From Rhynchosporium graminicola (Eukaryota > Ascomycota > Leotiomycetes > Helotiales > Ploettnerulaceae), in NCBI GenBank assembly GCA_900074885.1, contig FJUW01000012.1:992001-1056000 (forward strand): DNA of 64,000 bases, written 5' to 3'. This document shows, piece after piece, positions 9,548 through 62,590 of the stretch. Made by a program: the position numbers and the translations under genes. Each line of letters starts with the position of its first letter. The stretch's first letter is position 1. Below the pieces are notes generated by a model. That model worked only from the letters and a program-made list of their open reading frames with translations, was not told where the DNA came from and ran no database searches.

Positions 9548-10518
9548 TTATTTCACACACACCTTATCATCGAAGCCAGCAACCGCTAGTGATGAGTTAG
9601 TGTTCTGATGGTCTCCAAAAACTGAAGATTGTCACCTACCCGCACATTTGAGTCCAAACTTGCAGGTACCGGCCTTTGCCGTAGTGCAAGGATCTGTCAA
9701 AGCGTAGTTAGTTTGAGGTATGTTAAAAAGTCGAACATCGTGCCATGAACTCCTTCTGGCCCTCCTGTAGGTGGTACTGATTGATGCAACACCGGCGAAT
9801 CTTGCGGGGTGGATGTCAGCACGCTAATGCTACCCCCCCATCGCCTGAATAAGTCAAAGTGGAGAATCATCTACCCAAGGGCTTCTGACTAATCTGGGGA
9901 ATATAATCTGCCAGAAACTGGATCGAATTTAGGATCTCCACTTTGGAATAAACCAAGGGGGGATAGTATGTTCAGCTCCTCTTTGATTTGGGCTGTTACA
10001 CCTTGCTGTGTGTTCCCTCTTGGTCAGGGCCGACTCATAGGCGTAGCGCGTGCTTCTCTTCAAACGTTGCAGCCCAATCGGTTTACCCAGACGTCTGAAC
10101 CTCATAGGGCTGATATCAAGTGTTACCAAGTCCCATAGCAACCTATTGTGGACAGATTCAGACGTCTGGAGAAGCCGAGTACCGGAGGCGAAGGGCTCTT
10201 GTCGAAGGCATGATGAGAGTGTTACATACCCCCTTTGTTTCCTGAACCCGCACAACGATATCCAGTTGTAGATCCGGCCCCCGCTACAAATTGTCAACAA
10301 TATTAAAGTCGAACCCCCTGGTGAGTACCTACGGTTACATACTCCGGAGTAACAATCTGCCAGGGCGTTATTGGTGTGACATTCGCCTAAGCAGTTAGAA
10401 TAAGATAGTGCATATAGATATGTCTATACTACTTACCCCCATTGCCTTGATTATTATAAGCGGTTGTCAAGGCACTGAGCCCAAGGGCTATCATCGCTAT
10501 AAGACTAAAGAACTGCAT
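9548..10518 (-). CDS. Small secreted cysteine-rich protein, candidate effector, five exons
   Basis: Exons are 10437-10518, 10333-10386, 10230-10283, 9640-9693 and 9548-9585. Introns have donors gtaagt, gtaggt, gtatgt and gtaggt, and acceptors ttag, gtag, acag and ctag; two show CTAAC branch motifs. The product has 93 residues. Residues 1-20 (MQFFSLIAMIALGLSALTTA) form a clear signal peptide. Eight cysteines follow at 30, 39, 44, 56, 66, 74, 80 and 91, giving two similar units (C-x8-C-x4-C-x11-C and C-x7-C-x5-C-x10-C). The three inner exons are each exactly 54 bp with phase-1 borders, which suggests exon duplication. Intron 3 is 536 bp against about 50 for the others. Exon 4 could instead read through to a stop at 9632. 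Size, secretion signal and cysteines fit an apoplastic effector or antimicrobial peptide; that role is inferred and the family is not recognised. TE1 lies 80 bp upstream. Confidence 0.72.
9694..10229 (-). other. Oversized intron 3 of the secreted-protein gene
   Basis: This intron is 536 bp, roughly ten times the other three. Its ends are normal (gtatgt donor; CTAAC then gacag acceptor). It contains inverted copies of CCAGACGTCTGAA (near 10089 and 10174) and of AAAGTGGAG (near 9857 and 9937). An insertion into an intron of normal size is one explanation; a missed exon is another. Confidence 0.5.
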
Positions 10519-10593
10519 TGTAGATAATTGTGAATATAAGGTCGTGGGTCAGGCGTGAGCGAGAGATTGAGAGGGAAATGAAAATTAAGGGTT

Positions 10594-10598
10594 GCGGG
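10594..10598. repeat. Left target-site duplication of TE1 (GCGGG)
   Basis: GCGGG directly before the TG start of the left LTR matches GCGGG at 20736-20740 directly after the right LTR. Confidence 0.9.
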
Positions 10599-10739
10599 TG
10601 TTATAGTACAGTCCCAGATTATAAAGTAGAAAAGTCTTGATTCTTCTAAATACTATAGTGCGAGGGGCTATCTAAGTAGTAATAACTAATAGACACTAAG
10701 TATCTGTCCCTGTCCTGTGATATGTCCTGTCCCGTGATA
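10599..10739 (-). repeat. TE1 3' LTR (left copy), 141 bp
   Basis: It aligns end to end without gaps with 20595-20735. About ten differences were counted by eye, all transitions, as expected from RIP. On the plus strand it starts TG and ends TA; the TA is probably a RIP-altered CA. A polypurine tract (AGGGGGGGGAGA on the minus strand) abuts it, marking this as the 3' LTR of a minus-strand element. Confidence 0.92.
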
Positions 10740-11359
10740 TCTCCCCCCCCTAGGCGTAAAAAAAACTCTATCCTTAGAGAGAAAAGGAAAAAAAAAATTT
10801 CTTAGTAATTATCTTCGCTACTCTCCCTTAATAAGTTAAGGACGTCCCCTTTGAAACATAACCCTATTATAATCTGAGGAATTAAAGCTATATTCTCTAT
10901 GCTATCGTTATCCTTTCTAGCTAATAGTCTTATTATCTTTTTTATAGTAAGTTTCTTTATTAACTTAATTATTCTTACTAGTAGTACTTTAGACTTTCCC
11001 TTTATAAGCGATTTCGCGGGTATTAGTAATATAGTAAGGTTATTATCACTATTTTCCGTATAGCTAATAGTCCAGGCAGTTAGTAAAGCTATACTTATTA
11101 GCTTTTTCTTTAGATAGGACTATCTTAGTTCGTATAATTAGGAGTCTATATCTAGTACTATAGTACTAAAAAGGCAGCTATTTATAGTATTACCTTAGTT
11201 TTCTCGATTAACTAGGTCCTTAATAGCGTATATTATTTCCGCGTTACTAGCGATATGAGGTAACTCCTATATACTTATTAATTTCCTTAGGAATAGTATC
11301 CTATTCTTAATTAGGTCTATAACTCTCTAGTAGTATCTTAGCTTTAAAGGTTAATATAT

Positions 11360-13300
11360 TAGTAGTTATAGTAGAGCGAAGATAAAGGACTTATACTATT
11401 TTAATATACTCTTGTTTAGCTTTACTACGTCGGTCTTCTTAGTTCTCTTTGAAGATCGTCCGCCCTTAGTATCCTTCGACCGGTTATAATTAACTATACC
11501 TATATCTTCCTCTATATTATTTAGCGTTATTAGTAATTTAGATTATATATCGTAGTCTGAGGATAATATAATTAGATTTATTATATTTCCTATATTAATA
11601 CGCGCTTTAATTAAATACGTATTTTGATATACTCTTATACTACTCTTTATTTCGCTCTGAAAAATTAGGCTACGTGCGTTTAAACGTTCACGTAAGAATA
11701 TAAAGTCCTTTATCTTACTATTTATAATAAGTACTTATCTTAGCTTAAGCGTATATAGTATTAGAGAGTATCTTAAAATCTAGAATAGAATTCCTGATAT
11801 TACGATCATTAGGTCTAAGTCGCGGAATAGTACCTTATATAGTAACCCCGGTATAAATTCCGTCTAGTAGCCCGGTCCGTTAATAATAATTCTTAGAAGA
11901 GCTATTATACTTATAACTATATCTAGTACTAATAGGCATAAGATTTATACTAGCTTAACTATCTCTAGCGTAATAGTACATATGACCTCGCTGAGTAGTA
12001 CGATTATAGACCTATAAGAAGTACTAATTAACGTGCTCGGTAGAGCGTCTAGAATAGCAATAGGGTTTAGTATATCTTAAAGCGCTCGAAAACATTCTTT
12101 AATAACTGCCTTAGTATCTACGTAAACTTGAATTATTAAGGAACGTCTATTATATAATATCTGAAGAAGATATAGTGCATAGTTAGCGCGGTCCCTATCT
12201 AATAGAGATCGGTTAAGTATATAAAGGAAGTCCTCTATTGATTTATATATACGCTCTATCTCTACTACAAGTGAAATATATATACTATAATATATTACAG
12301 CGGAAGCTATAGCTTATAGGAATATTTCAAAGCTCGGCTTTAAGCTATCGTACCCTCTTATTAGCGCGTTATCGAGAATGAATTATCTATCGGTTTTACG
12401 TTTTGCGATAATACTAATATCTTCTTTAGTCTTAATTAATAGAGATAAGGTCTAGTATAAACTATCGAATACTAAGGAAGCGCTAATTAGTTGAAATACT
12501 TTCCTGCTTACTTATATCTCCTCTTTATACTCCTTAATAAGTTCTAATACTCCGGTCTCCTTTAATTTCTTTTATCGTATCTTCTTTTATCTCTTTAGCT
12601 CCTATAGTTCTTAGAGAACTAGGTAGAGTTTATCTCTAAGATACTCTTATATAGTAACTTCCACGAAGTAATAGTACTAATTATACTATATCTCCTCTAT
12701 AATATTAGAAAGTTTAAACTTCTAGCTCCCGAGAACTATAATATCTCTATTAGGATAAACGATATATCTGATTCTTAAATCGGAAGTTATAAGACTATTC
12801 AGAGGAAAGTCGCTTATAGTAAGGCGTAGGCGGAAGGCGTCTCTAAAGGCGACTCGCTAGGAGTAAAAGTATCTATTAATTAGTGAAAAGTTAGCTAAGA
12901 ACTATTTAAAAAGGCTACTTATCGCTATATTATAGTAAGCTACGCTAATTAGATAGTCCCCCGGATATATACTAGTTAGGACGCGAACGTTACCCTAGGG
13001 GCGTTCGATAATTAGGACTAATTCCTTATCGCTCTAATATAGTAGATATAAGTATAACTAGTTTTTATAATATATTCTATCCTTAGGAGCTTTATAATAG
13101 AGTATAAATAGCTATTAGAGTCCTAGCGGGAGGTTACTATTTAGGTTAATATACTCGTAGGGGTTATCTAACTCTCTGCTCTATATAGTAAGGTTAGGGG
13201 GGATATCTTAAGTAACTCTAATAATACTACTTATCTTATACCTTAAACTATATTCGTTTCTCTTAATATCGGGATAAAGTAATCTGTCTCGAAGACCTTA
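11360..13300 (-). pseudogene. Extra RIP-degraded reading frame downstream of pol in TE1, unknown family
   Basis: After the chromodomain stop, a single minus-strand frame can be followed for roughly 600 codons, interrupted only by TAG/TAA codons of the kind RIP makes from CAG, CAA or TGG. Readable patches include NVRVLTSIYPGDYLISV, IERIYKSIEDFLYIL and, near the end, KGGRSSKRTKK. It is sense relative to gag-pol. No protease, polymerase, integrase, envelope-like membrane segment or zinc motif was seen. It may be a third element gene or a captured host gene. The N-terminal limit is uncertain because stops are dense above 13.2 kb. Confidence 0.6.
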
Positions 13301-13619
13301 AAAGACTCGTAGAACGTTACTTCGACGAATTAGTTAAGTGAAAGAAGATAATAAGTATACTAGGGATAATAGAGTAAGGGATTTAAGAGTTCTTAGTATA
13401 TTATTATTAGTCGCTATATTCGGTCGAAGGAGTAACTCTTATCGCGGTTAATATAGAATTAATAGTAAGAGAGTCGATATATAGTAGTAAGATTATTATT
13501 AATAGAATTTTATATACGTAAGCTAGATAGGAAGGAGCTTAAGTAAGTAAATAAAAGCAATAGTAAATATTAATAAGGCTAAATTTACTAAGATATACGT
13601 CACGTGGATAATTTATTAT

Positions 13620-16600
13620 TTGCGTATTAAGGAGCCCTCGAACTTAGCGACTAAGTTCAGTATATCCTCTTTTAATATTAAGGCAGGTTCCTAAGACGTA
13701 GTCTAATAACCTATATATTTAACCTTATAATATATCTTTCTTATCCTATCTCTAGGTTATTTTCTTAGTTCCTTACGCAGGATTTTCTTAATAATATAAT
13801 ATTTAGTACTATCTTTATCGTATATTAAGCTAAGTTCAGGTATAGTCCGATTAAATAGATCCGGTATAACTAGCTCTAAGTGTTCGATTAAGATTACTAG
13901 GTGTATATTTATCTATTCGGGAAGCTCTAGTTCGTAAGTAAGTAGGTTTACTCGCTTAATAATCTTATATAGTCTAGACTTAATAAAAGATAGCTTAGTC
14001 TAATTCTATAAGAGCCTATACCTAGAGTCTATCTCTTTAGCTAGTCTGATATAAACTTCGGCCCCTAGCTCTAGTAATACTAATATCCGGCCCTTATTAA
14101 AAGCAAGTTTTATACGAGACTATACTAATACGACTAACTCTATCGTATCTTAAAATAAGGTTTAATAGTTACGTATAAAGTCTTATCCCTCTTTTATAGT
14201 AAATATAAGAGTAGTAGTATAATTAGTAGAAGAGAAAGGGGATCGGGGTTTTTATCCGAATCTTAGTTTATAAGGCGTGAACCCGGTAGAGGTATTTTCT
14301 GAAGTATTAAGGACAAAAGATATAGCCGGTATAAATCCTTCCTAATTAGACTAATCGAAACGTCTAGTAATAGTATAATATAAAGTATAGATAAATATTT
14401 AATTAGACTATTCTGATTGACTATCTACTTTAGGGTTATTAGCTATAGTAAAAGCTAAGTTAATATTAGCGAAACTATATACGTCTCCCTAAAAACCGCT
14501 AGTAAATCGTATATCTCGATCTAATATTATCTTTTCCGGTATACTTATATCCGCGTATACGTCCCTGTAATAGGCCTTAGCCTAGTCCTCGCCTCTCTAA
14601 TCCTTATACCTTATAATAACCTTAATCTACTTTATTATCTGATCTATAAATAGTAAGATAGCGTCATATCCCTCCTAAGATACTAGAAACCTTATAATTA
14701 AGTCTATATAGAAGGTATATAGTTAAGTTACTAGTAGTAGAATTAGTAAGAGTATACTATTAGGTAGGGTTCTGCCTAGTTTTATTATATAGCAGATAGG
14801 ATAGCTAGCTGCGTAAGATTAGACTATACGCTATATCTTACGTATAAATACCTTATCCTTTAGGAAGTTATATATCCTCTATACTCTTACGTGAGCTCGA
14901 TTATTATAAGTAATACTAAGAATCTTTTTAATTAATTTCTTAGGTATATATATACGATTAATCTTATTAGGATTACGAAAGAATAGTAGCTTTATTCTAG
15001 TGTTAAATCGGAATAATTCAAAGGTAGAGATATATTCGTTTTAAGGAGACTTCTAATAGTTTATCTTTATTTTCTGATAGATCTGCCTAAAGGTCTTATC
15101 TATTAGAAGCTAGCGTAAGAAGGATACGACTAATTACTTATCTATATATACTATAGTTAAGTATAAAGTTATTTCGTTCTCCTAGACTAGGTAATAAGTT
15201 ACTTTTAGAATTAAAATATCCTCTTTTAAGGATTCGTATATAATATTTAATAATTCTTAGTTCTCCTTCTAGCGTAGTTAATATTATAGCTAACTTAAGG
15301 CGTTAGCGTTTAAGTAAGTCTTTCCGGCTCTATGAATTATATTTATTTTATAAGTGTACTTAGCTAGAAATAGGAACTAGTTATCTAGCTTAGTGCTCTT
15401 TTTGCGGGGATAGTCCTTGAAGTAAGTAAGTATAGCCTAGTGATTAGTATAGACTATGAAATCTGAACTATTAAGATATTATAGTGACTTCTCTAGCGCT
15501 TATACTAGTATACCTGTCTCTAGTTTAGTAGGCTAGTAGTTTATTTCTGCTATAGATAAGGATTTAGATAGAAATAGGACTAGCCTCTCTACTTTATTAG
15601 TAGTATCTATCTAGTGAAGAGCTATACTATACCCGAATTCCTTAGAACTATCGATATAAAGTATAAAGTCCTATCTGAAGTCAGGGAATTTAAGGGTTAG
15701 CGCTAAAGTAAGCTAGTCTTTTAATATATCGAATGCTAGTTTAGACCTATATAGCAGGTTATCTATATATTACTCGGAGTATATTTTAGTATCCTTATAA
15801 CGTTTAGCTTTCTAAGACCGAGTTAAATTAGTATATTCTTTATATCTTAGTTAGGGAAGCGGAATAAGTATCGCTTTAGTATAGTTACCTTATCTTACTC
15901 CCTCCTGTAGTATATTCTTAAATCCGATTATCTTAAGCTCTAATAATAGTAACAAGATAGCTACGTAATATAATATAAATTTATAATAGTACCTGAAAAA
16001 TCCTAGCGCTTTCTCTAATTAAGATAGGGTTCTTAGGAATTCCTAAGATTATATTACTTCTATCTTCTCTTCTAAGGTATTTAGCTCTAGTCTAGATACC
16101 TTATATCCTAGTGCCTTAATAGATAGTTAAGCGAAGTAGTATTTTCCTAGAGCTAGTATAACTCCGGCGTCTTCTAGGAGAGTAAGAGCTAGGTCTAGGT
16201 CCTTTATATACTATTCCGGTATAGTTAAGAAGATAATTACGTCGTTGATATAAATAATAATAAACTTCTAGAGGTATTAGCGAAATAATTTCTCTATGCG
16301 CGCTTAAAAGAACGCTAGAGTTATCGCTAGACTTATCGTCGCGATAGTAAGTATCTTATATCCCCTATGCGTAGTAACTAACGCTATCTTCTATTAGTCG
16401 GCAGGCTCTAAGGGCTACTAGAAGAAGGATTTCGTAAGGTCGATACTAGAGAAAATAATTACTCTACTTATAGCAGATAAGACGTTGTTAGCTTTAGGTA
16501 ATAGATATATATTAAGTATTAGTTTTATATTAACCTTCCTAAGGTCGACTATAACTCTTGGCTTCCTATTCCTATAGACGATAAATACCGGAGTAGAGGC

Positions 16601-17300
16601 TAGGGAAGGTTATCTAAGGGGTACTAGTACTAGTGAACTATCGGCTCTTATTAGGTCTAAGATTTTATCTATTTCCGCCTTATCCTTTTAGGATTATAAG
16701 AAAAGTAGTCTTTTCAGGTTATTAATCTTAGCGCTTTCCTTAAATAGCACTAGTATATTAATTCCGTTATTAAATCGTCCGAGTTCGTGACGAAATAAGT
16801 TCGTATAGCGATAGAGGACTTCCTAGATCTTATTCTTAATCTCTTCCCTAAAGGCGTTTAATATATCTGATTTCGCTATATCTTCTAGAAGGGGTCTAAC
16901 TAGGAAAGAGGTACTAGCTAGATACTTTCCTTCCGGTTCCTCCTTTACGAAGGGCTATCCTTCGTAGATACTAGCTAAATTTAGTAGTACTAGGTAATCC
17001 TTAACCTTAAGTATATATTTCTTAAGTACGCCTAGAATTATCCCTCTTCGTAGACGGATAGGAGTATAGCTAAGGTTCGCGAACGGAATTAGTATAAGAA
17101 GACTTATAGTAACTACGTTAACTACGGAACTAAATTTTCCGAGTAATATATCGATTTATAAGTAAGGATATATTATATAGCTAGCTTATTACTTAGGAAA
17201 TAAGCGGTATATTATAAGTAAGTTAATTCCCTCTTCTAGTTATACTATTACTATCTGCAGAAGATAGATATTAGTATACTTTAGGGCAGAATCTATAGTA
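13620..17300 (-). pseudogene. TE1 pol remnant: RT, RNase H, integrase, chromodomain
   Basis: Minus-strand reading gives an RT core ending in a leucine-rich block (DLALTLLEDAG) after Y-I-N-D-V-I-I-F. An RNase H patch follows (VYTNH, then KSTKLDNWFLFLAKY), then an integrase core (DRDIRF, NPKVDSQSE) and an IEHLE...W-EPA chromodomain. This order is the Ty3/gypsy chromovirus order. D-to-N and W/Q-to-stop changes are typical of RIP. A protease should lie upstream of the RT but was not pinned down. Confidence 0.85.
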
Positions 17301-20300
17301 TTCGCTACTTTAGTTATCTTAAGGAGTATATAGTTATTATTATCTCTTACTTACAGATAGTATAGCTTCTCTAATAACTCTTACCTAAAGTTAAGTTTAT
17401 TTTCCGAGAAAAAGTCAAGCTTAAGAAGAATTCCTCCTAGTATCTTTAGTATAATATAATAGTAGTACGTAGGAAACTATAGAAGTCCTTTACCGGAGAT
17501 TATCCTATATAAGATAGCTATCTCGATATAGTCGGAAATAGTAGGACCTGAACTTATACTAGAAAGACTAACCTATAGGCTATCTATCCTATATCGAGTC
17601 CTTACGGAAGGGAAGTACTACACTAGACTCGGCTTATTAATTAACCTAATAGGCGAAGTAATATTAGTAGTAGCTTCTATCAGGAAGTTATCTTTACTTA
17701 ATATTTAGATTCTAGTATACGTATTAGCTATAAAAGAAGTATTATTTAGGAAGATAGATATCTTATCCTTCGACTCCTAAGGTTATAGGTCCGGGATCTT
17801 TATAGTATAAGAATAAGAGATTAATATATCTCCTTCTAAGGTAATAAGTAAGATTATAGCGGAAGGGTTCTTAACTAGGACAAAGTCCTCCTCGGTTTCG
17901 TCTTCATAGGAAGGCGATATATAATTAAGTATAAAAGGTAAAGATAGTAGTACTTTATTTTAAATTTATTCTATCTTTTTCGCTAAAGGTAGCGCTAAAG
18001 TAAGTTTATTAAAGACTAATAATATTACTAAAATAGAGTTTAGGTAAGAATAAAGCCGCGAGGGGACCCTCTCTAGGTCTCGCGATAAGCTTTTCCCGAG
18101 TCCGCGGATAGGGAAGGACTTAAGGTTTCAGGCGATTTATTATCCTCCGAATTATACTCTTAATCCGCTTAATATAAGAATCCGTTATTAGAGTAATTAA
18201 GTATAACTAGTAATTAAGAATAATACGTATTGTAGCTATTAAAATTTCCGGTTATTAGTAAGTACTAAAGAGAGTACTAAGGTTAGTTTATTATTATAGG
18301 TACTTATAGCTAGTACTAGTATAACAGCTAGTTCTAATAGGGTTATCTTCCGTTACGCCGGGCAATTAGTACGGAGGCTAGTACTAATATAGTTAACTCG
18401 ATAGCCTTATCTCCCTCCTTCTCTTATCGTTACTTTCTTCTGAATTCGGTATATTCTACTAGTAATATCTAAGGTCGCGAATAAGGAGTTAAGAGTTAGG
18501 TAGGTGCTATTATCGTCGGATACCGTACTATTAGTACTATCGGTACTTAACTCTATCGTTCGCTTCGGGGGTCTCTATCTCGCCTAATACCTTAGTAGTG
18601 CGAATTATCTATTACTAGTTATTATAACTCCTATATCTCTTTAGTTTACTTGTCGATACGTAACTAAGTCTATAAGTAAGCTTCCCTCGCCTGATTCTCT
18701 ATATTATAGATCTTTAACTTAAACTCGTTTATCGTATTCCTATAGTCTTATAAGGGTATACTCGCCGCTAGACTTAGATCTAAAGCTTAATATATTTATC
18801 GGATAATAAAGTCTTAGTTTATCTCTCCTGCCTCGATATAGAGGTTATACTTATTATCTAAGAATTATCTTAGGGATAACTCCTTTTCGTCCTTAAAGGA
18901 GTACTTTAGAGTATCTGCCTTTTGTACTGCTATACTCGGATTCGTATGGAATTATAGTATTAACTAATACTTCTATTCTTCTAAGCTCTAAGATATAAAG
19001 CTAGTAATCTCTAGAGATAAGATACTAAGCTAGATAGCCGCCTTATCCTTTATATAAATTAGTAAGACTTCGAGGATAGTATCTTTACTATATCGAGCTA
19101 TTATTATATTAAGTATCGCGATATAGCTTATAACTAAAGTAGTACTATTAAACTATCCTATGTCCTGCGGGCGAAGTCGTCGATATTAAGTACTAGACTT
19201 ATATAGTCTATTATCTTACTATTATCTTCCCGAGTCTTAGGGGTCCGAGTCTTTCTTATCTTTAATATTAGTTATATTATTACTATATATAAAGTTATAA
19301 CGATAGCGATTTAGAAGAGGAATTTCTGTCTCGATAGATAATCGGACGGGTCCCGGAGTGCGAGAGATAGACAGCCTCGGTACTACTAGTATAGAAGATA
19401 TACGTATTGCTATTTCTGCCTCGGGAGGGCCGGCTTGAAATCGGGTTAAAAAGGAATTAAAATTTACTATTAACTTAATTGCTATTATTTTTAAGGTACT
19501 AATCGCCCTAATCGCCTTATCCTTTAAGTCCGCTAAAAGGCCGAGGTCTAGAGTACGAACTAAGGCTTTAGCTTATCTTAGAATTAGTAGGAGGATTAGC
19601 TTAACTAAGTATTTATTACCTCTATCCTCTATATCTTCCTATAAGGTCTAGATAAAGATAGCGTCGCTCTTCTACTTATTCTTAATATATACTAATACTG
19701 TAGCTATAGCTATTAGCGGTATAAATATAGAGCTAGGTAGCCGGTTTATTAGGATAAATTTATCTTATAGCTATCTTACTAATTTTTCGGCTCTAAGTAA
19801 GGTCTTATCTTTTAGTAAGATAAACTATCTAGGTAAGAGAGACTTTAATAATTACGATAACTAGTCGATCGGAGAAGTCTATCTTTAATAGAAGGAGGCT
19901 ATCGGAACTATTAGCTTAGGGAAGGCTTAGTCTCGGATTACTTATAAGTCGACCGGTAGAGATATATATTAGCGTTAACTCCGGGACGTAATCTGTATTA
20001 GTATAACTAGTACTCTCTCGATAGATTAATCTACCTCGGTATCTTAGACTTATCCTTATATTAATCGAGGGTTACGAGGCGCTATAAGGAAAGGACTCGG
20101 TTTAGGTAATAATCGTTATAGTATCTCTAGGTATTCTTAAATAAGGGATATAGAAGGGCCGGCGAAAGATGATCGGAGCTTCCTTTTCTATATTATTTAT
20201 TCTAATTCGGGTGTTATAGATAAAAATCTCCCCTAGGGGTCTCTTAAGCGGTCGTTCCTCCCTCGAGTACTATTTCCTCTAGTATTAGAGCCTCTGATAT

Positions 20301-20590
20301 AGCGGTATATAGAGTGTACCGCTAGTAAACCTCTATAAGTCTCTGGCGAATCGCAGGGGGTTCTAACTCGTATATAAGGAGTTAGTTGAAGGATAAGGTA
20401 TAAGTAATCCGGAGAGGATAAGGTTAAGAGATTAATACGGGGAGTCGTGCTATACTACCCTATAAGGTAGCAGTAGAGTCGTACTATAATAATAGAGCGC
20501 GAAACGCTAGGGAAGTGAGAGTAATTATAGTAGAATTAAATGAATTAAGTAGTTTAAAGACTTAAGTTACCTTACTTTCTTGGAATTACT
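17300..20590 (-). pseudogene. TE1 5' leader and gag-protease remnant
   Basis: This is the part of TE1 between its 5' LTR and RT. By position it should hold gag, and the protease near its lower end. It is heavily RIP-mutated, with stops in all frames, and no zinc knuckle was confidently placed. The assignment rests on position and element orientation. Confidence 0.5.
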
Positions 20591-20594
20591 ACTA

Positions 20595-20735
20595 TATTAT
20601 AGTACGGTCCTAGATTATAAAGTAGAAAAGTCTTGATTCTTCTAAATACTATAGTGCGAGGAGCTATCTAAGTAGTGATGACTAACAGATACTAAGTATC
20701 TGTCCCTATCCCGTGATATGTCCTGTCCCGTGATA
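20595..20735 (-). repeat. TE1 5' LTR (right copy), 141 bp
   Basis: It is the same length as 10599-10739 and aligns without gaps. Its plus-strand start is TA instead of TG, a RIP-type change. It is followed by the GCGGG target duplication at 20736-20740. Confidence 0.92.
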
Positions 20736-20740
20736 GCGGG
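20736..20740. repeat. Right target-site duplication of TE1 (GCGGG)
   Basis: It matches 10594-10598 and confirms that TE1 inserted as a unit at this spot. Confidence 0.9.
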
Positions 20741-20745
20741 GGACA

Positions 20746-20752
20746 CTATATA
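20746..20752 (-). promoter_or_regulatory. Probable original TATA box of the secreted-protein gene, displaced by TE1
   Basis: On the minus strand TATATAG lies 5 bp outside the right target duplication. With TE1 and one GCGGG removed, it would sit about 90 bp upstream of the ATG at 10518, a usual distance for a fungal TATA box. TE1 now puts it more than 10 kb away. The role is inferred from position and sequence. Confidence 0.5.
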
Positions 20753-23700
20753 GAAAAAGGTAGCGGTGCCTAGCACGAGTCGATTTTGCCTCACATTCCT
20801 ACGGAACGTACCTTTTGTGCACGAGAAACGGATCAATAAACTTTGAGTTCAACATTTATGGTTTGTAAATTGAGAGGTAAAATCTAGATCGTCAACAGTA
20901 GCACAAACAGCAAAGGTTAGATTATCACCTTTGATACTATCTATCCTCCCCACCTTCCTTCCCCCCGGTATAATTCCCCGTGTGGCAAGGGGATTGCTAG
21001 GAACTTTTTGCACCTTCGGTACGTATATCTGACCGTATCAAATCGCATTGTTGGGTCCAAGATTTGAGTGCAGCACTTTACGTCTATCAATTATGCGGAA
21101 GAGATCGGTACTCTAATACGGTAAGAACTAACCCGAGTTACCGAGGGGATAGTATGGAATTACGAAAGGTATTTAGTAGAAGGTTAAAAAGAAACTCGAA
21201 GTCCTGCCCGGTCATTCCCTAAGCAGTAGGGAACCGCATAATCTACTTCACAATCTCACAAAAGATTTCGGCCAGCCCGATCAGGCATTACCACATTATG
21301 TAATCAATTAGATATTCCTTGATAAAATACACATAATTTCTATTATTATAGCTTCTTAGCTACAAACTTATACATAATGAACATCACCAGCTTAGACTAT
21401 AGATTTACTGTATTACATCTCGATAAATCTGTAAAATAAAGTCACATGATCCGAAAGCCCCCACTGAAATTTCATTAGGCCCTAGCTTTTCGGCTACTTT
21501 CCTCCCTAAACTTGGAAAATACAAAGTACAATCGTGGTAACCCTTTAGAAGATTATGAACCATCAAATTTCCTATTTTACCAGGTATTTGACAGTTATCT
21601 AATTTCCTTATCATACGTGCGATTCACTTTTTCGTATGATAACCGTCAGACGTAATACTTTCTTAGAGCAGATCAAACTTCAACGTATGTGGAAGACCAC
21701 TTAGTTGAAAATCCTTGAGGAACGAAGTTCCAATCCTTGAGATTGACATGACTATCTGAGCTCAAGTTTGCGCACGCGCTCTAAATCAATTACAGAACAA
21801 GAACTTTAGTATGTCCTTCACCCTCCAAAGCATACTGCAACGAGCAGATTACCTAGGTAGTCAGTCTAGCATCTATTAAAACTATACTAGACAGTCCCCT
21901 CAGGCGCTGATGATTGTCTGGTTTTTCTAGCATTTCTTAGTTCTTAATAGCATAACAGCGCCGGACTTCAATTTCTACAATCACAAAATTCGTAATTTAT
22001 CAAAGGTGTATGATACTAGTTTTGGAGAGATATGAAGAGATATGAAGAGTTTTTCGCAACCGGAAATAACGGCTTGAGAATTGGAGCTTGTGATGCTTTC
22101 TCGTAGAGACTGAGATCGTCCGAAGGCAGGCTCATGCTCAAGCACTACTTGAAGATCACATGTTCAAGGTAGCTGTTGCAGATTAGGTAATTCCCATGAT
22201 GATCTCCTCAACGATTTCAATGGCTGGCTTCACCTCAAGTATATCCACTCCAGCAGGCATATCAACAAGGCAGCCAAATCTCACACGCGTCCCAAATGGT
22301 CCCAGAATCATAACAAATTCGGTCCGTAATTATTAGTATTTTCAGACGGCCCCGAGTGAGTGGCACAAGACGCGCAAAAGAGGCGCTGCTCACATGTCCT
22401 CTGAGCGGTGCTTCAGGCTGATTCCAGCCATTCAGGAAATCGCTTTCTTACTAATTCACCCTTCAAGAATTTCAAGAACGGTCATAGCTGACAACTCCTT
22501 ATGAAGCTTCTGCCAATGTAGCGGTGTAAGCACGAATACATACCTCATGGCGCTGGACATCATACAGTACCTTGAAAGACCATATAACAGGCCATCTCGA
22601 TGTTTGGTAAACGGCACGTAACCCGGGGAACTCTCCTCTCCCAGTCCCTCGTGCATAAATAAGGGCCTCAACTCGTGATTGTTATCTATCATAAAATGGA
22701 TCTGTACCAAACCTGGTAAGCGACGGGGATTACCTGGGCTCCTCTACCAGTTCTGCGCGCATCTCTACCTTGCTCCTCACCAGTTTTCCCACGAGTCTCG
22801 TTCCTAAAGTCTAGTAACCTCGTGGTATATGGCTGCGGCTGGTTAGGCTAAATGATTTTTAGCAGATGTATGCAGGGGTTGGGAATGGGCGGCGCCTTTA
22901 TACTTCCCCGGCGGCGCCTGTACGCTTAGGGATTAGCCATGGTTTGCGGCTCGGCTCTTTGCCAGAGTAAATATCTGGCGCAATATGTAGCTACGTAGAT
23001 GCTAAGTGTGTATCGTTTTTGAATCATAGCACATTTTTCATTTTGACGCGGATGCGGATGCGATGCAACGCTCGTCCATGATTGTTATTAGGAATGGCTG
23101 ATCGAAAGAGGTTGCGATGATCGAAAGTCAAAGTTTTGAGAGCGAGTCCTAGCTGGTGCATTTATACTTTTGTGGAGGAGGGGACGAATGAGGGGCCGAT
23201 TGGATTCCGGGTTGTTGAAGAAGGTTGGACGAGGTTTGGGATGAACAGGAAAATACGCAGCAATCTTCACGTCGGCAGCCTCAACCCCGTGAAAGCAACG
23301 ATGAGGACTAGCAATCATCATGCCATGGATCGTAAACACGAGTCAATTGCATTTCGCGAGTCAACACAGACAACTCTAACTGACATAAATAAGGATTCCC
23401 CGCGAAGTTTATTGAAGTATCAAACGCTCGAAAAGACTGACTTCCATGATCGAACTTCTTGAAACCTTGAAAAAAAAAAAAAAAGGAAGTCTATAGATCA
23501 ACACTCGGATGAACTGCGCCCGATGGACAAAATCCGACTGACTCGAGAATGAATCGCACAAGTGCCTCGCTTCAGACACCAATACCGGTGTTCCATCCGA
23601 AATTTCGGGACGGGCCTCTGTTTCAGGACCAGTTCACATTGTCTAGAAAAAGAAAACAAGGCGAGCAAGGCGTAGACACCCGATGTTTCGCGTACTTGCA

Positions 23701-41803: not shown

Positions 41804-42495
41804 GCTTTCTTTACTGTCTCCTCTCTTACGATAGCCAGAGTGCTTTGCCCGTGACTTTGGTATATTCAAAGCCTGATCAGTGATCTGACAGCACTGTTTC
41901 AAATCTCGGTATACGTGGGAAGTTCGTAGTCCTATTCGAGGACAACCAGCCAGGAGTATCGAATTCAGACTGAAATCATGAACTGAGGCTAGGTAAGCTG
42001 AGTAAAAAGAACAAAGACTTTCTCTAGATTTCGTGGTCCTGTTGCCGGCCAACTGGATAAGAGAGCTATGATGGCGGGGTAAGTTTAGGATTGCGCTTGA
42101 TGATGATGGCTAGATACAGCCACAATCTCAAGTCTGATGGAATCGAATAGTGTTCGTTTGAAGCTCTATTGCGCCGCATAAAGTTCATGAAGTCTACCCA
42201 AAATTACAAGAAGGAGTGACGACTCATGCGACGGCGCCATGAGCGAGGCTGAGGTCGTAAATGCCCCTCCTTCAGGTGATCAATCACCCCACTTTAGAAT
42301 GCCACACAGCTCAGCCTTGTGTCGCGAGACTTCGCTTCCATTCTTCGCAGCTCCATTTTATTATACTACTTTTCTACCTCCGACCTTCCATGCGACCTAC
42401 TTCCGGTATCCAGAAATCCAGAAAATCTGTGCTTTCTGGCGAGGGGGAGTATCGAAGGGTAGTGAGACGATTGATCATTGACAACCGCCGGCAAG
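41804..42495. promoter_or_regulatory. Shared divergent promoter region
   Basis: About 690 bp separates the divergent starts of the Lsb5-like gene and the 994-residue protein gene, so it must contain both promoters. No individual element was confidently identified. A short frame at 42239-42481 on the plus strand lacks support. Confidence 0.5.
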
Positions 42496-45400
42496 ATGTC
42501 GCTGTATCAAGGTTGGGATCGAGAGAGCATGCTGCAGAGGGAAGTTGTTGGGAACGAAGGATCGTGGGTAGCAATTCCTTCGTTCAGATTCCGTATGCTG
42601 AAATTTTTACGTAGGCTTCACAAAATATCCTCAGGAACATCATTACCATCGTTTACACCAATTAATCCTCCGCGTGAACCAGCCCAGTTTGTCCTGCCCC
42701 GAACGACTCTGTACGCAAGAGGACTTGATGATGATGCCTTGTACAACGAAATCCCCGAAATACCATACAGAACTCCGGCAGAAATGAGAAAGAAGAGAAC
42801 GGTTTCCCAAGCAAACAAAGGCCGGGCGATATCAATAGCGCAAGTCTGGGAGTACAGGGACGAAGGGGATGTTGCATGTCAGAATCAAGGAGCTGATTTC
42901 GAAGCTTCATTTCCCAAGAGGAACAAATCAGCGATCTCTAAACGATCCAAGTCTGCACTAGGCCAACAGCACCCGACCCAGTCTCAATATACGCAAGATG
43001 GTAAAATCTTTGGCTTGATGCATGGCACAGTGGATCAAGAGGAAGAGCAGGGCTCTCAACTGACACCTCCACCTAAATCCAGCAAAAGGCACTCCAAAAA
43101 GACCGTACAACAGCCGCGGAACACGAATTCCACGCCAGGTCCCTTCCGCAACCCAGTGATCACGAAGCCTTCCGTGTCTCGCGAGGCAGACCTTGATAAG
43201 GATAGGACACTTACAAAGCCTGTTACAATTCATCAAGGATGGACCAGCACGCAAGACGCTGTGAAAACCCACCCTGGCTACCTATCGAAATCGACTCTCG
43301 ATAAGCTCGCAGCATTCCGATACAAGTCGTCTGCACATATACAAGCGGACCGTCCTTCTGCGATAGGTGGAACTCTCCAACCAAGGGAAGTAGTAGAGCC
43401 TATTGAGGCAGTCGAGGAAGTTGATCCTGCTTCTTCAAGCGACTATGGCTTTTTGCAAGGCGTTGACTCTTCCTTCGGTGACCTCGATTGTGCCGATCAT
43501 TCTCCTACTCATCCTGATGTGTCTGCTGAACATCAACATGACCAGTCTCAACGAGCAGAATGGGGCCCCGACCATCTTCAAGAAGGCGATGTCTTTTTCA
43601 GCGATGTAAATTGGGATGCTCCGGCGGGAGGTCCCGGTGCAAACGAGGGTCATTCCTCACAAGATCACATCCCGGCCCCCAAAATCACGAGCATGTCCGG
43701 GTCCAAATTTCGAAATGACGCTGACTTGAACTCAGTTGGCGGCGCCCCACCTCCTTTACCAATAATGCCTGGTCAAAACCGTCCTCCTTGTCGTCCAGAT
43801 CCTGTCAAAACGCAGATTCTTTACGACTCCGACCACCTCTCTTCGCTTGCAGTAAGAGCGGTTGCAGAAGGGATGCATGTTGAAGTGCCTGCAAGTCAAC
43901 CGCACGAAGACTATTCAGCGGGGTGTCTCCACCAGCCGGACTTTTTCCCTCTTACCGAATACGGCCCGGTAGCTGGTGAATCGGTTGAACTTCAGAAGAG
44001 CACCACAAACTTCACACATCACCAAGGAAATTTGCCCAATCATCTGCCGGACATCCTAGCATGTGGAACAATTGACTATACTCCGCGCGGCCAACTTGAA
44101 GGTGGAAAGTTGAGTGCTAGAAAGCCGCCGTCCAGACACGTCTTTGACGTTCAAGTCGAACGATCCAACTTTGGAGAAACCGAAACGGCACCTCGAGATA
44201 TCCCTAATGGCTTCGAGCTCCTCGAATTCGACGACGAAGGCATCGATGATGCTGATCTGCTTGCAATTGCGTCGGACGAAGCCATACCAGAGACACAGCC
44301 ATTGGCGTCTGGAACTCTGACCGTCCGACCAGGCTTGGAATCAGCCGAAGAAGCTTGTCCAAGCAGCATCTGTGCGACCCAGCCCACTTTGCCAGTAGCA
44401 ACAGATTCGCAACTTTTGCAAGATCGCGAATCAGGGTCACCCGAAAGACTATCTCACGATGAGTATCCTTTGGAAGATGGACTCGAAGAAGGTGACATGT
44501 TGTCTTTGCCTGCGCATCCACAAGGTGTCACTGAGACGTTCCAAGCACCTCCTAGCCTCCAATATTCCTTTGGAAATGGTCCAATGTCAGGGGAAGTATA
44601 CGCCAGATCTCTCCAATTCTCCTCCCCTCCTAAATCGTGGCTGTCTTCTGTCCTACCGGCAAAGGCAGTCGAGGCGCCTCTTGCTGACGGACATAGTCCC
44701 TCCAGAGCCCAGCCTATTGGAAACTTGGGATCTCACCTTGCGGAGGAAGAGGACTGGTATTTCATCAGTTCAAATGACTGCGTGAAGACGTCCGAGAATG
44801 TAGCTTTGTCTGATCCTGCTTTGGATCGAGAGAAAACCCGTCTAAATGAGATTACAAAATGTGTTATAAATTTAGGGCCACAAAAGCAACGCAAGCGCAT
44901 TTCTTACCCCAAAATTTATACAGCAACCCAAGCATCCACGTCGGAGGAGATCGTGGTGGATGACAGCCATGAGTACGAACCTCTTCAACCATTTGCTAGG
45001 CCAGATTTTCCTTTCTTGGTGCTCGACCGATGCCCAATACCTGGAGTGACAGCACAAACATTTCTTCGTGTCTGCTTCCGAGTTGGCGAGATGTTCAGAG
45101 AGGGAGCGAAGTGCAATGCTTTGAAGCAGGATGCTATCATCGAGTTGTTCGCACGGGTTACCTTCTCGTCTCGTGAACCTGGCACCACACAGCAGCACTT
45201 CCAGTTCGCTGATCTTTGGCATGATCGGCCTCCCTTCCCAAATGGTATCTTGACCAACTACAAGACTTCGGGTTTGGCTGAAAGTGAGAGCCGAGCTTTC
45301 ATTGGAGCTGAACAGCATGTGATGGCGAGATGCATTGGACGGCTGAGAAAAGACACCAGGAATGCAACTGGGAAGTTCATCGATATCATCAATATCAGAC

Positions 45401-45594
45401 AAACCGACTGGTTAGTATTCTCCACCGCCCCCATAATTTTAAAGCTCTGGCTAGGATCTGGGATCGGATTATGCATTCTGATCCTGAGACATTATACTAT
45501 TTCCATACTAAAGAGTTTGAATAGGGAGGAAGTCAAGTGGACGAAGAGAATCATAAGTGCGGGTCTTGTGAAGTCAGAAAACGTGGATCATTGA
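42496..45594 (+). CDS. Conserved fungal protein of unknown function, 994 residues
   Basis: Exon 1 is 42496-45410 and exon 2 is 45525-45594, with intron gttagt...aatag. The first in-frame ATG is 42496 (MSLYQGWDRES); an upstream TTG is not a likely start. Near the N-terminus is SLPSFTPINPPREPAQFVLP and then LYNEIPEIPYRTPAEMRKKR. Most of the protein is long, disordered and acidic or serine/proline-rich. A folded C-terminal part at about 830-985 includes FLRVCFRVGEMFREGAKC, IIELFARVTFSSRE, FQFADLWHDRPPFP, MARCIGRLRKD and, across the splice, DIINIRQTDWEEVKWTKRI. This end looks like a conserved Pezizomycotina domain. No enzymatic motif was seen, and function is unknown. The region around residues 25-45 could contain a short missed intron. 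Confidence 0.85.
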   Translation: MSLYQGWDRESMLQREVVGNEGSWVAIPSFRFRMLKFLRRLHKISSGTSLPSFTPINPPREPAQFVLPRTTLYARGLDDDALYNEIPEIPYRTPAEMRKKRTVSQANKGRAISIAQVWEYRDEGDVACQNQGADFEASFPKRNKSAISKRSKSALGQQHPTQSQYTQDGKIFGLMHGTVDQEEEQGSQLTPPPKSSKRHSKKTVQQPRNTNSTPGPFRNPVITKPSVSREADLDKDRTLTKPVTIHQGWTSTQDAVKTHPGYLSKSTLDKLAAFRYKSSAHIQADRPSAIGGTLQPREVVEPIEAVEEVDPASSSDYGFLQGVDSSFGDLDCADHSPTHPDVSAEHQHDQSQRAEWGPDHLQEGDVFFSDVNWDAPAGGPGANEGHSSQDHIPAPKITSMSGSKFRNDADLNSVGGAPPPLPIMPGQNRPPCRPDPVKTQILYDSDHLSSLAVRAVAEGMHVEVPASQPHEDYSAGCLHQPDFFPLTEYGPVAGESVELQKSTTNFTHHQGNLPNHLPDILACGTIDYTPRGQLEGGKLSARKPPSRHVFDVQVERSNFGETETAPRDIPNGFELLEFDDEGIDDADLLAIASDEAIPETQPLASGTLTVRPGLESAEEACPSSICATQPTLPVATDSQLLQDRESGSPERLSHDEYPLEDGLEEGDMLSLPAHPQGVTETFQAPPSLQYSFGNGPMSGEVYARSLQFSSPPKSWLSSVLPAKAVEAPLADGHSPSRAQPIGNLGSHLAEEEDWYFISSNDCVKTSENVALSDPALDREKTRLNEITKCVINLGPQKQRKRISYPKIYTATQASTSEEIVVDDSHEYEPLQPFARPDFPFLVLDRCPIPGVTAQTFLRVCFRVGEMFREGAKCNALKQDAIIELFARVTFSSREPGTTQQHFQFADLWHDRPPFPNGILTNYKTSGLAESESRAFIGAEQHVMARCIGRLRKDTRNATGKFIDIINIRQTDWLVFSTAPIILKLWLGSGIGLCILILRHYTISILKSLNREEVKWTKRIISAGLVKSENVDH

Positions 45595-48409: not shown

Positions 48410-49132
48410 ATTATTAATAACTACTAATACAAATAACTATAATTTTTAGATATATACCCTATAGATATCCTAGATAATAGATATTAATATTTTAGAAAGA
48501 TATAAAAGGTTAAAGTAATAGTCGAAGATAAGTTTCCTTTACTACTACTTCAACTTAACTCTATAAAGCACGTGTCTACGTAGTAATATATAGTAACACT
48601 TTCTAGTAATAGTAAAAGCCTTATAATCTTTATTCTCCTACTTTAGAAACTTAATTCTAGGAAAGTCTAAAGTGCAAATTTTCTAGTAGATAGAGCTATA
48701 TATAATAACACCTAATAGTAATATATAAAGTCTCTATTTCACTCTTAGAATCTTTCCTAATTATTCTTCTAATAACTTAAAGCTAACTTAATATACCTAA
48801 CCTTAAGTATTATAATAGCTTATACTCTACTAGATTTTAATTATCTAGCGATAACTACTACTTTAATAGATATACCTAAAGAGAGAGATCGCTAAGAAAG
48901 CTAAAATCTCCTAAGAAGATAGAATACTAGTAATATACTAATAATAAAGATAAAAGGGACTAGAAGATCTCTATTATTAAAGATAAATCTTGCCTTATAG
49001 TTATTAAGTAAGAGCTTTTTCTAGTTAATAAAGTATAACTTTACCGGGATAAAGTAGATATCTGTAATAAGGAAGTAAAGGAGTAAGAGAAGGTTAAGGG
49101 GATATTTAGTATTAACCTAGGGAATACTATTA
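48410..49132. mobile_element. Left flank of TE2: older RIP-mutated transposon remnant
   Basis: From about 48410 the sequence changes abruptly to AT-rich DNA nearly free of CA and TG. It ends at the GAAAG target duplication of TE2 and should continue at 56920, so TE2 inserted into it. No domain was recognised and the element class is unknown. Confidence 0.6.
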
Positions 49133-49137
49133 GAAAG

Positions 49138-49405
49138 TGTGACGACAGCTCACCTGAATATCATATAAGAAGAAGGATAGATACTAGGGCCCAAGTTCAT
49201 AGGTATCCCGGCAGAACTAGTGTCCGACTTGGTATAGTATCGGGCTAGTACCGGCATATATATATAAGGTGCCTTATACTCTATCTCTCTTCTTCTTCCT
49301 TTCTTATCTTTTTGTTTCCTTTATAGTAGACTATATAAGATCGCTCTTAGCCTCCCTACTTGTTTATTCTTACTTATATACTACCTTAAGTCTTATATCG
49401 TTATA
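49138..49405 (+). repeat. TE2 5' LTR, 268 bp
   Basis: It starts TGTGACGACAGCTC and ends TCGTTATA (CA changed to TA). It has the same length as 56647-56914 and is nearly identical to it. GAAAG precedes it at 49133-49137. A TATATATATAAGG box at about 49256-49268 probably drives transcription. Confidence 0.93.
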
Positions 49406-49619
49406 TTAAATAAAAAGATCAAGATAGCCGGAGATAGCCTACTATAATATCTTACTACTAAGTTAGTTATTCGATAACTACTCGTATATAGCTAAGATAC
49501 TAGAGATCTCTCGGATAACTATAAATCAGGGTTTAATTTAGCTTATCGCAAATAGTATAATAGAGGAGGTCTTCGCTGATACTCCTTTAATAACCCCCTT
49601 AGTATAAAGGAATTATAGA

Positions 49620-51060
49620 TAGATTTTAAAGAAAGTATAATAAATACCTCGGAACTTTAACCTCTACGTATCGCCGCCGAAATAGCCCTAATATACCCCT
49701 TTTTAAGCTACTATTATAGCTCTTAACTAATAAACTAGAGACCTTTCTAGTTCTAGGGGAACTTAACGCGATCCCCCCTACTCTACCTCCGAACCTAATC
49801 TATTATACCTTTCCTTATCTTAAACGTCTCTTGCCCTAGAGAATATTAATACCTTATTAAGGAAGTACTAACTAAGAGGGAAAGGAAAACAAAAGCGAAA
49901 TTCACTAAGAGTATAATCGCTAAGTACTCTTACTACTACAGGTGACTCGAACCTGATCTATTCTCTCTTATAATAATTAGCAGAATAAGAGGAAAAGAAT
50001 AACTCTCTAGAAGATACTATAGATAGACTAATCTCTGCATAAGATAAGTTCCTTATAAAGGTCTCTCGCTTATCTTCAACTCTCTAACTAGAACTAATAC
50101 TATAATCTCCGCGTATAGCGGAGTTTAATAACCTAATAAACTCTATTCTGATACGTAGTACCGAGAGAGAGGATACTATTCCTAATAAACTATCTCTCTC
50201 TCCTAGCGCTAAATTAGTAGAGTCACGCCCTAGGAAGTCTTATCTTACTAAGAAGATCCTGCCTTTAGATAATAGATCGGACCTTACTTTCCTCTAATAG
50301 AGAGTATCGATACGAGACTAGCTAGCTGTAAACGCTAACTACTACCCTACGGACTTCTCCTAGTGCGTTCTCGTATAGGAGCTAGTTACTAGATTAGCTA
50401 AGAAGTATCTTACGCTTTAGTATCTCGCTAATAAGTTTAAAACTAGTAATAAAATAATCTCCTTATTAGAAGAGAACTTTCTTACTAGTTTAAAGGAAGA
50501 CGATTACTATAATGCTTTCTACTACCTGGAAATATAATAACCCGGCTATATACGCGAGACTTTCGCTAAGTTTCGTAGTCGATTTCAAAGCGCTACTATC
50601 TAAAGTAAAGTTAAAAAGAAGGAGTAGTTCTTCTATATATAAGATAAGATTATACTATTCTTACGCGCTTTAACTCTTATTATTAAACTAATATAAAATA
50701 AGGATTACGCTTCTATAGTTAGATCCTTACTTTCTTTTAATACTAAGCGTCGCTATAACTCAGAACGTACTTATCCCGAGAAAGCTACTACCTAGGTATA
50801 GTACTATAAGCCTACTATTACTACTATAACTACTACTAGTCCTACCTCTTACTAGTCCTTAAGCTTAGCTCCTCGATAAACTACTCTTATACTATATATA
50901 CGTACTTCTACCCTAGTATAAGCTAGTACTCTCTCCGCGCTAAAACGCCCTACTACCTCGACCGGAGAACCCTTTAAGTATTATAGTTATAGATAGCTCG
51001 GTTATATTAAGCTAGATTACCTTAACTTACCTAAGGTTTAATTAATTAACGAATTTCCGG
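49620..51060 (+). pseudogene. TE2 gag remnant with zinc knuckle
   Basis: At 50979-51020 the codons keep exact C-x2-C-x4-H-x4-C spacing, with TAT at the Cys and His positions, as RIP turns TGT or CAT into TAT. Upstream is a helical gag-like region. Nonsense codons run throughout. Confidence 0.75.
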
Positions 51061-51199
51061 AAGAGGATCAAGTAACTAAGGAAGTAGTAGAAGATATACC
51101 CTCCGAATCTGGATTAATACTAGAGAGAAACGATAAGGCCTAAGTAAAAACTCCTTCTTAAGTCTATATAAGTATAATCTCTCTAATCTAGACTTTAAC

Positions 51200-56640: not shown

Positions 56641-56646
56641 GGGTAA

Positions 56647-56914
56647 TATGACAATAGCTCACCTGAATATCATATAAGAAGAAGGATAGATACTAAGGCC
56701 TAAGTTCACAGGTATCCCGGCAGAACTAGTGTCCGACTCGGTATAGTATCGGGCTAGTACCGGCATATGTATATAAGGTGCCTTGCACTCTATCTCTCTT
56801 CTTCTTCCTTCCTTATCTTTTTATTTCCTTCGTAGTAGACTATATAAGATCGCTCTTAGCCTCCCTACTCGTTTATTCTTGCTTGTATACCGCCTTGAGT
56901 CTTATGTCGTTACA
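56647..56914 (+). repeat. TE2 3' LTR, 268 bp
   Basis: It is the partner of 49138-49405, starting TATGACAATAGC (TG changed to TA) and ending GTCGTTACA. This copy keeps the CA end and is followed by GAAAG. Confidence 0.93.
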
Positions 56915-56919
56915 GAAAG

Positions 56920-60763: not shown

Positions 60764-60965
60764 TGTGACGGCGCATGGTATACGTGGCAGATACGGGCCA
60801 GTATCGGTGCCTTAGGCATACCCTCCTTATATATATAGAAGGTGCAGACTCCTTCAGAGCTCTATATCTTTCTGTTTCCTTCGTACTAGACTATATAAGA
60901 TCGCTCTTAGCCTCCCTACTTGTTTATTCTTACTTATATACCGCCTTAAGTCTTATATCGTTATA
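60764..60965 (+). repeat. TE3 5' LTR, 202 bp
   Basis: It starts TGTGACGGCGCATGG and ends TCGTTATA, matching 62750-62951 at the same length. CCTTC at 60759-60763 is the left target duplication. The last 100 bp closely match the end of the TE2 LTR. Confidence 0.93.
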
Positions 60966-62548: not shown

Positions 62549-62590
62549 TATTACTACTATAAGAAGTATAGTCACTATAAGGGCGATTAT
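62549..62590 (+). pseudogene. TE3 gag zinc knuckle (RIP-mutated)
   Basis: Fourteen codons read YYYYKKYSHYKGDY. Replacing Tyr at positions 1, 4 and 14 by the Cys that RIP would have removed gives a standard CCHC knuckle with H at position 9. It shows that the TE3 interior once coded for a functional-looking gag. Confidence 0.8.

What the first reader, a model, noticed from the sequence alone, without database searches (positions are those of the whole stretch)
9548..20760. LTR retrotransposon separates a secreted cysteine-rich protein gene from its TATA box
TE1 sits 80 bp upstream of the ATG at 10518, with an exact GCGGG duplication. The sequence just beyond the far end carries TATATAG on the gene's strand. 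Joined across the duplication it would lie about 90 bp upstream of the ATG. So TE1 appears to have cut the core promoter from a candidate effector gene, which could silence it or put it under heterochromatin or LTR control. The gene's coding exons look intact and free of RIP. In pathogens this kind of insertion can change host recognition; that consequence is inferred.
Basis: partly seen in the sequence, partly recalled or inferred. Interest (0 to 1): 0.85.

Follow-up and report, generated by a model that had tools for sequence, protein, structure and literature searches.

The report
Retrotransposon in a secreted-protein gene's promoter
In a fungus that is, or is very close to, the barley scald pathogen, a dead 10-kb retrotransposon sits 80 bases in front of a small secreted-protein gene and has pushed its original upstream DNA 10 kb away, a kind of insertion known to change or silence such genes in other plant pathogens.

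Summary
The anatomy is confirmed. A 10,137-bp Ty3/Gypsy element (10599-20735, minus strand, 141-bp LTRs, exact 5-bp duplication GCGGG) lies 80 bp upstream of the ATG at 10518. It is heavily RIP-mutated, with no stop-to-stop frame above 111 aa.

The gene can be drawn more fully: five exons, 93 aa, hydrophobic leader, 8 cysteines, single copy. None of 378 control strand-segments gave such a model. Its third intron holds a roughly 131-bp MITE. The only protein relative found is an annotated model of the same locus in Rhynchosporium graminicola WAI453, partly in another frame and without the leader.

TATATAG does lie beyond the far end and would have started 92 bp upstream of the ATG. Three points weaken the claim that a TATA box was cut off: TATA motifs are not a general feature of this genome's ORF starts (1 of 49 sense, 1 of 49 antisense); the adjacent LTR brings TATA-like sequences at -105 and -87 on the gene's strand; the native, unusually pyrimidine-rich 80-bp leader is kept.

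Changed or lost expression is likely but unshown. Closest precedents: UhAvr1 (LTR element 115 bp upstream) and AVR-Pib (Pot3 at -54). A new example of a known kind.

The parts
10599..10739 (-). 3' LTR of the element (element and gene run on the same strand); carries TATAAT and TATAAC at -105 and -87 from the ATG
10740..20594 (-). RIP-degraded interior of a Ty3/Gypsy retrotransposon; C-rich on the plus strand from 10743, i.e. a purine tract next to the 3' LTR
   Evidence: GC 0.326, composite RIP index 1.48; Pfam order RVT_1, RT_RNaseH, Integrase_H2C2, SH3_Tf2-1 on the minus strand; sequence
16097..16498 (-). reverse transcriptase remnant (RVT_1)
   Evidence: E 2.6e-4, 21.2 bits, below Pfam's cut-off of 29.6
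15356..15682 (-). RNase H remnant (RT_RNaseH)
   Evidence: E 1.4e-13, above cut-off
14792..14947 (-). integrase zinc-binding remnant (Integrase_H2C2)
   Evidence: E 0.0016, below cut-off
13877..14005 (-). Tf2-1-like SH3 remnant
   Evidence: E 5.9e-4, below cut-off
20595..20735 (-). 5' LTR of the element
10594..10598 (.). target-site duplication GCGGG, gene side
20736..20740 (.). target-site duplication GCGGG, far side
20746..20752 (-). TATATAG on the gene's strand; the surrounding CTATATAG is palindromic, so TATATAG is also on the plus strand
   Evidence: position arithmetic
10519..10598 (-). native 80-bp leader, pyrimidine-rich (best 35-nt stretch 83% C+T); also holds TATATT at -20
   Evidence: 1.3% of 5,000 random 80-nt segments are as rich; 0 of 49 other leaders
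10437..10518 (-). exon 1: start codon and signal-peptide-like leader
10333..10386 (-). exon 2, 54 nt
10230..10283 (-). exon 3, 54 nt
9694..10229 (-). intron 3, 536 bp, expanded by at least one insertion
   Evidence: average intron in R. commune UK7 80.5 bp (PMC5118889 Table 2, passage)
9833..9963 (.). about 131-bp MITE with inverted ends, flanked by TA on both sides, inside intron 3
   Evidence: 10 further BLAST pieces at 8 other sites in the genome; inverted arms 9855-9865 / 9935-9945; copies aligned
9640..9693 (-). exon 4, 54 nt
   Evidence: same residues in P0001
9548..9585 (-). exon 5 with stop codon
   Evidence: same residues in P0001

Best explanation
[quoted passage not shown] It later mutated heavily by RIP and has no intact coding frame. 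Shown: the insertion, its orientation, the RIP, the open exons and the retained leader. Inferred: the gene has lost whatever control elements lay more than 80 bp upstream, including a possible TATA element, so its expression is most likely weakened or mistimed, through loss of upstream activation and through repressive chromatin on the RIP-mutated DNA next to it.
For: Element limits and 5-bp duplication. Ty3/Gypsy domains in order on the minus strand. RIP index 1.48 inside against -0.57 in the leader. A unique gene model with 4 introns, consistent phase and 8 cysteines, and none in 378 control strand-segments. Flanks without other copies. The locus is retained in R. graminicola WAI453: P0001 (WAI453_010030) is on a contig of the same length, 2,635,092 bp, as P0002 (WAI453_010036), the relative of the window gene at 42475-45594. 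In Ustilago hordei the authors attribute changed expression of UhAvr1 and virulence to a retrotransposon whose sequence begins 115 bp before the start codon (PMC4081816, abstract and passages). In Magnaporthe oryzae, isolates with Pot3 in the AVR-Pib leader, as near as -54, are virulent on the Pib line (PMC9040519, passages).
Against: There are no expression data. The element's own LTR offers TATA-like sequences at a fitting distance and on the right strand. Short 5' leaders can hold the start site, and this one keeps a rare pyrimidine-rich tract. TATA motifs are not general before ORF starts in this genome. PMC9040519 also says that short insertions in the AVR-Pib leader may not affect its function. 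Exons and splice sites are open, which would not be expected to last in a gene silent for a long time. RIP spread into the flanks is not shown.
Confidence: 0.6

Rival explanations
1. The 3' LTR now serves as the gene's promoter: element and gene point the same way and the LTR puts TATAAT at -105 and TATAAC at -87, close to the lost TATATAG at -92, so the insertion replaced rather than removed a core element.
For: Minus-strand orientation of element and gene; positions of the motifs; open gene model.
Against: The LTR is only 141 bp and RIP-affected. TATA-like words are common in AT-rich DNA. The motif at -87 is the LTR's own end and would come with any insertion in this orientation. Regulators that might bind the LTR are unknown.
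Confidence: 0.2
2. The insertion is neutral: the 80-bp leader with its pyrimidine-rich tract, or distal elements acting over 10 kb, suffice, and the element is harmless intergenic DNA.
For: Leader kept and unusually pyrimidine-rich; no general TATA rule; many other copies also lie in RIP-free DNA (35 of 36 bins of 400 bp below 0.3 beside nine left ends; right ends mixed).
Against: Close precedents where insertions at -54 to -115 go with changed expression or lost avirulence.
Confidence: 0.15
3. The gene is not expressed as drawn, or is a decaying gene: two insertions (promoter, intron 3) mark a locus already released from selection, and the WAI453 annotation reads much of it in another frame without a signal peptide.
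For: P0001 starts at an internal ATG, reads exons 1-3 in another frame and uses part of the MITE as an exon (one search compared by eye); no other relative found.
Against: The five-exon model is open, phase-consistent, has 8 cysteines, and has no counterpart in 378 control strand-segments. The introns implied by P0001 at 10436-10387, 10332-10284 and 9639-9586 agree with it.
Confidence: 0.15

Closest known systems
UhAvr1 in virulent Ustilago hordei Uh362 (PMC4081816; abstract and passages seen)
   Same: LTR retrotransposon close upstream of a small secreted-protein gene (synteny ends 115 bp before the start codon), coding region intact, promoter separated
   Different: There other isolates, expression and host response were examined; here none were available. 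The LTR there resembles that of a copia-type element (Tuh3); here the element is Ty3/Gypsy with heavy RIP.
AVR-Pib with Pot3 in the 5' leader (-54, -231, -235, -241), and AVR-Pizt with a solo LTR of Inago2 at -181, in Magnaporthe oryzae (PMC9040519; passages seen)
   Same: Transposon insertions a short way upstream of an effector's start codon
   Different: Population and virulence data exist there; Pot3 is a DNA transposon (recalled); here a full-length LTR element next to an untested candidate gene
Effector genes beside repeats in Leptosphaeria maculans (PMC3945186; search listing only)
   Same: Small secreted-protein gene next to AT-rich repeat DNA
   Different: Epigenetic control is the subject there; here it is only a possibility

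Membership tests
Ty3/Gypsy LTR retrotransposon | Two direct LTRs with short target-site duplication | tested here: met
   141-bp LTRs, GCGGG on both sides; same 5-bp rule, exact in 8 of 10 pairs
Ty3/Gypsy LTR retrotransposon | Order RT - RNase H - integrase on one strand | tested here: met
   RVT_1, RT_RNaseH, Integrase_H2C2, SH3_Tf2-1 in this order on the minus strand; only the two RNase H models pass Pfam's cut-off, and the integrase core was not found
Ty3/Gypsy LTR retrotransposon | Intact gag and pol (autonomous copy) | tested here: not met
   no stop-to-stop frame above 111 aa inside the element
RIP-mutated repeat | C-to-T type changes with high TpA and low CpA/TpG | tested here: met
   index 1.48, GC 0.326; all 10 LTR differences are transitions
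Secreted cysteine-rich effector candidate | Signal peptide, small size, at least 2% cysteine | tested here: met
   93 aa, 8 Cys (8.6%), hydrophobic N-terminus by a simple hydropathy rule; no signal-peptide predictor was available
Secreted cysteine-rich effector candidate | Expressed during infection | not testable with these tools
   no expression data
Secreted cysteine-rich effector candidate | Restricted to the genus | tested here: inconclusive
   only R. graminicola P0001 found; the search needs shared 5-residue words, and unannotated genes are missed
Promoter-disrupting insertion | Empty site in another isolate | not testable with these tools
   no fungal DNA besides the window's own assembly was searched; the one relative found is a protein
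Promoter-disrupting insertion | Changed expression of the gene | not testable with these tools
   no RNA data
TATA-containing promoter | TATA motif enriched at the expected distance in this genome | tested here: not met
   1 of 49 sense and 1 of 49 antisense in the -130 to -60 zone of ORF starts of at least 150 aa; 1 and 1 of 33 at 200 aa; 0 and 0 of 19 at 300 aa. Starts are mechanical, so the test is weak and says nothing about this one gene

The most novel reading that the evidence does not exclude
The LTR has been captured as the core promoter of a candidate effector: its TATA-like box took over the position of the displaced one at almost the same distance from the ATG, so a RIP-mutated retrotransposon now ties the gene's activity to the chromatin state of the element (off in culture, on when heterochromatin opens in the plant).
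Probability: 0.12. Interest if true: 0.6.

Novelty: new member of a known kind. Interest (0 to 1): 0.3.

Why it matters
If the gene is expressed in planta and some isolates lack the element, this locus would be a natural experiment on how a retrotransposon rewires a secreted-protein gene in Rhynchosporium. It also shows a candidate effector that the one annotation seen (WAI453_010030) reads partly in another frame, with a MITE piece as an exon and no secretion signal.

Tried and rejected
A first 75-residue model without exon 3 was replaced after comparison with P0001 showed the 49-bp intron 10332-10284. Several hits overshot the LTR end by a few bases, one of them to query position 459, which raised the question whether the TATA flank belongs to a longer LTR. 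I rejected that: at the 11 other right-end loci inspected the sequence after the LTR differs (C71 shares only GCGG), and the 5-bp duplication fits. LTR divergence as a clock was rejected because all differences are RIP-like transitions. Insertion preference of the family was looked for in flanks of other copies. Beside nine left ends 35 of 36 bins of 400 bp have a RIP index below 0.3. Beside six other right ends the picture is mixed: L003, L004 and L006 are nearly free of RIP, L005 is RIP-mutated from 250 bp on, L002 reaches 1.75 and L007 has one bin at 0.92. Of six flank ORFs scanned one had a Pfam hit above cut-off, an aspartyl protease near the C50 copy; the four window ORFs in the same call had none. 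Nothing can be concluded. Family hits for the gene's protein: none at all in Pfam for the 75-residue model; for the 93-residue model one below cut-off, a phycodnavirus capsid model at E 0.014, taken as chance. Solved structures: nothing convincing (best E 0.02, 0.077). Paralogs in the genome: none. Rfam and a bacterial-code tRNA scan of the window gave nothing. A bacterial-type promoter scan of 10500-10760 gave 1 site against 0.7 expected and does not apply to a fungus.
Full report
What is there. The window is part of a 55.3-Mb assembly in 121 contigs. The window ORF at 42475-45594 matches R. graminicola WAI453_010036: of 1032 aligned columns 973 are identical, 55 are gaps (two intron-like blocks) and 4 are substitutions. 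So this is Rhynchosporium graminicola or a very close relative; the species is an inference. Published R. commune UK7 has 55.59 Mb, 163 scaffolds, 17.06% LTR retrotransposons and a mean intron of 80.5 bp (PMC5118889, passages). A paper on barley scald names WAI453 together with Rhynchosporium (PMC6937342, search listing).

The element. Two 141-bp LTRs (10599-10739, 20595-20735) differ at 10 sites, all transitions. The duplication GCGGG is exact. I read both ends of 10 LTR pairs of this and a sister family, the window's included; two further loci were seen at one end only. Eight pairs show an exact 5-bp duplication, one differs by C/T, one is unclear. In three of the eight the left LTR begins one base later than the BLAST extension placed it, and in one I read past a 17-bp tandem extension of the right LTR. 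Pieces of the interior, read with X at stops, gave RVT_1 (E 2.6e-4), RT_RNaseH (1.4e-13), Integrase_H2C2 (0.0016) and SH3_Tf2-1 (5.9e-4) in order on the minus strand; only the RNase H models pass Pfam's cut-off, and a weak unrelated hit (bHLH_INO4, E 0.1) was ignored. It is a Ty3/Gypsy element reading toward the gene, with its 3' LTR beside the gene and a purine tract next to that LTR. GC is 0.326 and the composite RIP index 1.48 inside, -0.57 in the leader and -0.43 in the exons. The first 300 bp beyond the far end have an index of 0.29, and the 250-500 bp bin has 0.71; other non-repeat 500-bp bins of the window reach 0.59. Slight RIP spread on that side is possible but not shown.

The gene. 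On the minus strand from 10518 the exons 10518-10437, 10386-10333, 10283-10230, 9693-9640 and 9585-9548 give 93 residues with 8 cysteines. Introns are 50, 49, 536 and 54 bp, all GT..AG. Allowing common fungal donor, branch and acceptor patterns and one long intron, this is the only model of 70-120 aa with at least 8 cysteines and a hydrophobic start at the locus, and 0 of 378 control strand-segments of the same length (from the window's non-repeat DNA and the 200 kb) gave one. The limits of that test were set knowing the model. Intron 3 is long at least in part because it holds a MITE at 9833-9963, flanked by TA, with 10 further matching pieces at 8 other sites, two of these on one contig. About 400 bp of the intron remain unexplained; an imperfect inverted repeat at 10078-10178 hints at another insertion. 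The only protein relative found is P0001, WAI453_010030 of R. graminicola, 82 aa. Comparing it with the window by eye, it implies the same introns 1, 2 and 4, but starts at an internal ATG, reads exons 1-3 in another frame, and takes part of the MITE as an exon, with one residue there unlike the window's. It agrees with my model only in the last 30 residues (100% over 32% of the query). Hence the locus and the MITE exist in WAI453; whether the retrotransposon does cannot be told from proteins. No paralog was found in the genome, and no known family or solved structure convincingly.

The TATA claim. TATATAG on the gene's strand is at 20752-20746 and would start 92 bp before the ATG across one GCGGG. 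TATA[AT]A occurs 24 times in 72,800 strand-bases of nearby non-repeat DNA, so its presence in a fitting place is moderately unexpected (about 0.02 for 60 nt) before allowing for choice of motif. Against a special role: among 49 ORF starts (at least 150 aa, mechanical) in 200 kb of the genome plus 36.4 kb of the window, the -130 to -60 zone holds TATA[AT]A in 1 on the sense and 1 on the antisense strand. The LTR beside the gene has TATAAT at -105 and TATAAC at -87, and the leader itself TATATT at -20. The 80-bp leader is 70% pyrimidine; its best 35-nt stretch is matched by 1.3% of 5,000 random 80-nt segments and by 0 of 49 leaders. Pyrimidine tracts near start sites are a recalled feature of fungal promoters. 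So the older arrangement could have been TATA at -92 plus a pyrimidine tract, and the tract stays with the gene.

How it most likely works. The insertion separated the gene from its upstream control DNA; lower or mistimed expression is the most likely effect, aided by repressive chromatin on the RIP-mutated repeat. Rivals are promoter supply by the LTR, no effect, and a locus already decaying. No expression or isolate data allow a choice.

What is known. In U. hordei the authors attribute changed expression of UhAvr1 and virulence to an inserted retrotransposon whose sequence begins 115 bp before the start codon (PMC4081816, abstract and passages). Pot3 at -54 to -241 of AVR-Pib and a solo LTR at -181 of AVR-Pizt were found in M. 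oryzae; isolates with Pot3 were virulent on the Pib line, while short insertions in the same leader may not matter (PMC9040519, passages). Epigenetic control of effectors in L. maculans is in PMC3945186 (search listing). Searches for a Rhynchosporium case of this kind showed none by title or start of abstract; 20 of 22 and 15 of 24 hits were listed and, apart from PMC5118889, not opened. The finding is therefore a good new example of a known kind.

Noticed in passing
window 9833-9963: A roughly 131-bp TA-flanked MITE sits in intron 3 of the gene; part of it is an exon in the WAI453 annotation (P0001).
   Followed up: yes
window 10078-10178: Imperfect 25-bp inverted repeat (84%) around CAGACGTCTG in the rest of intron 3, perhaps a second old insertion; no other copy found in the genome.
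   Followed up: partly
window 48500-64000: A second large RIP-mutated AT-rich block reaching the window's end.
   Followed up: no
window 10740-13876: About 3.1 kb between the last pol-type domain and the 3' LTR without any Pfam hit; it seems long for a Ty3/Gypsy element.
   Followed up: no
G000 C50, C75, C82 copies: LTR pairs of the same family lie 17.7 to 22.3 kb apart, about twice the window copy's length: nested insertions or a longer family form.
   Followed up: no
L036 (C51:332900-333500): The right LTR carries a 17-bp tandem extension before its target-site duplication.
   Followed up: no
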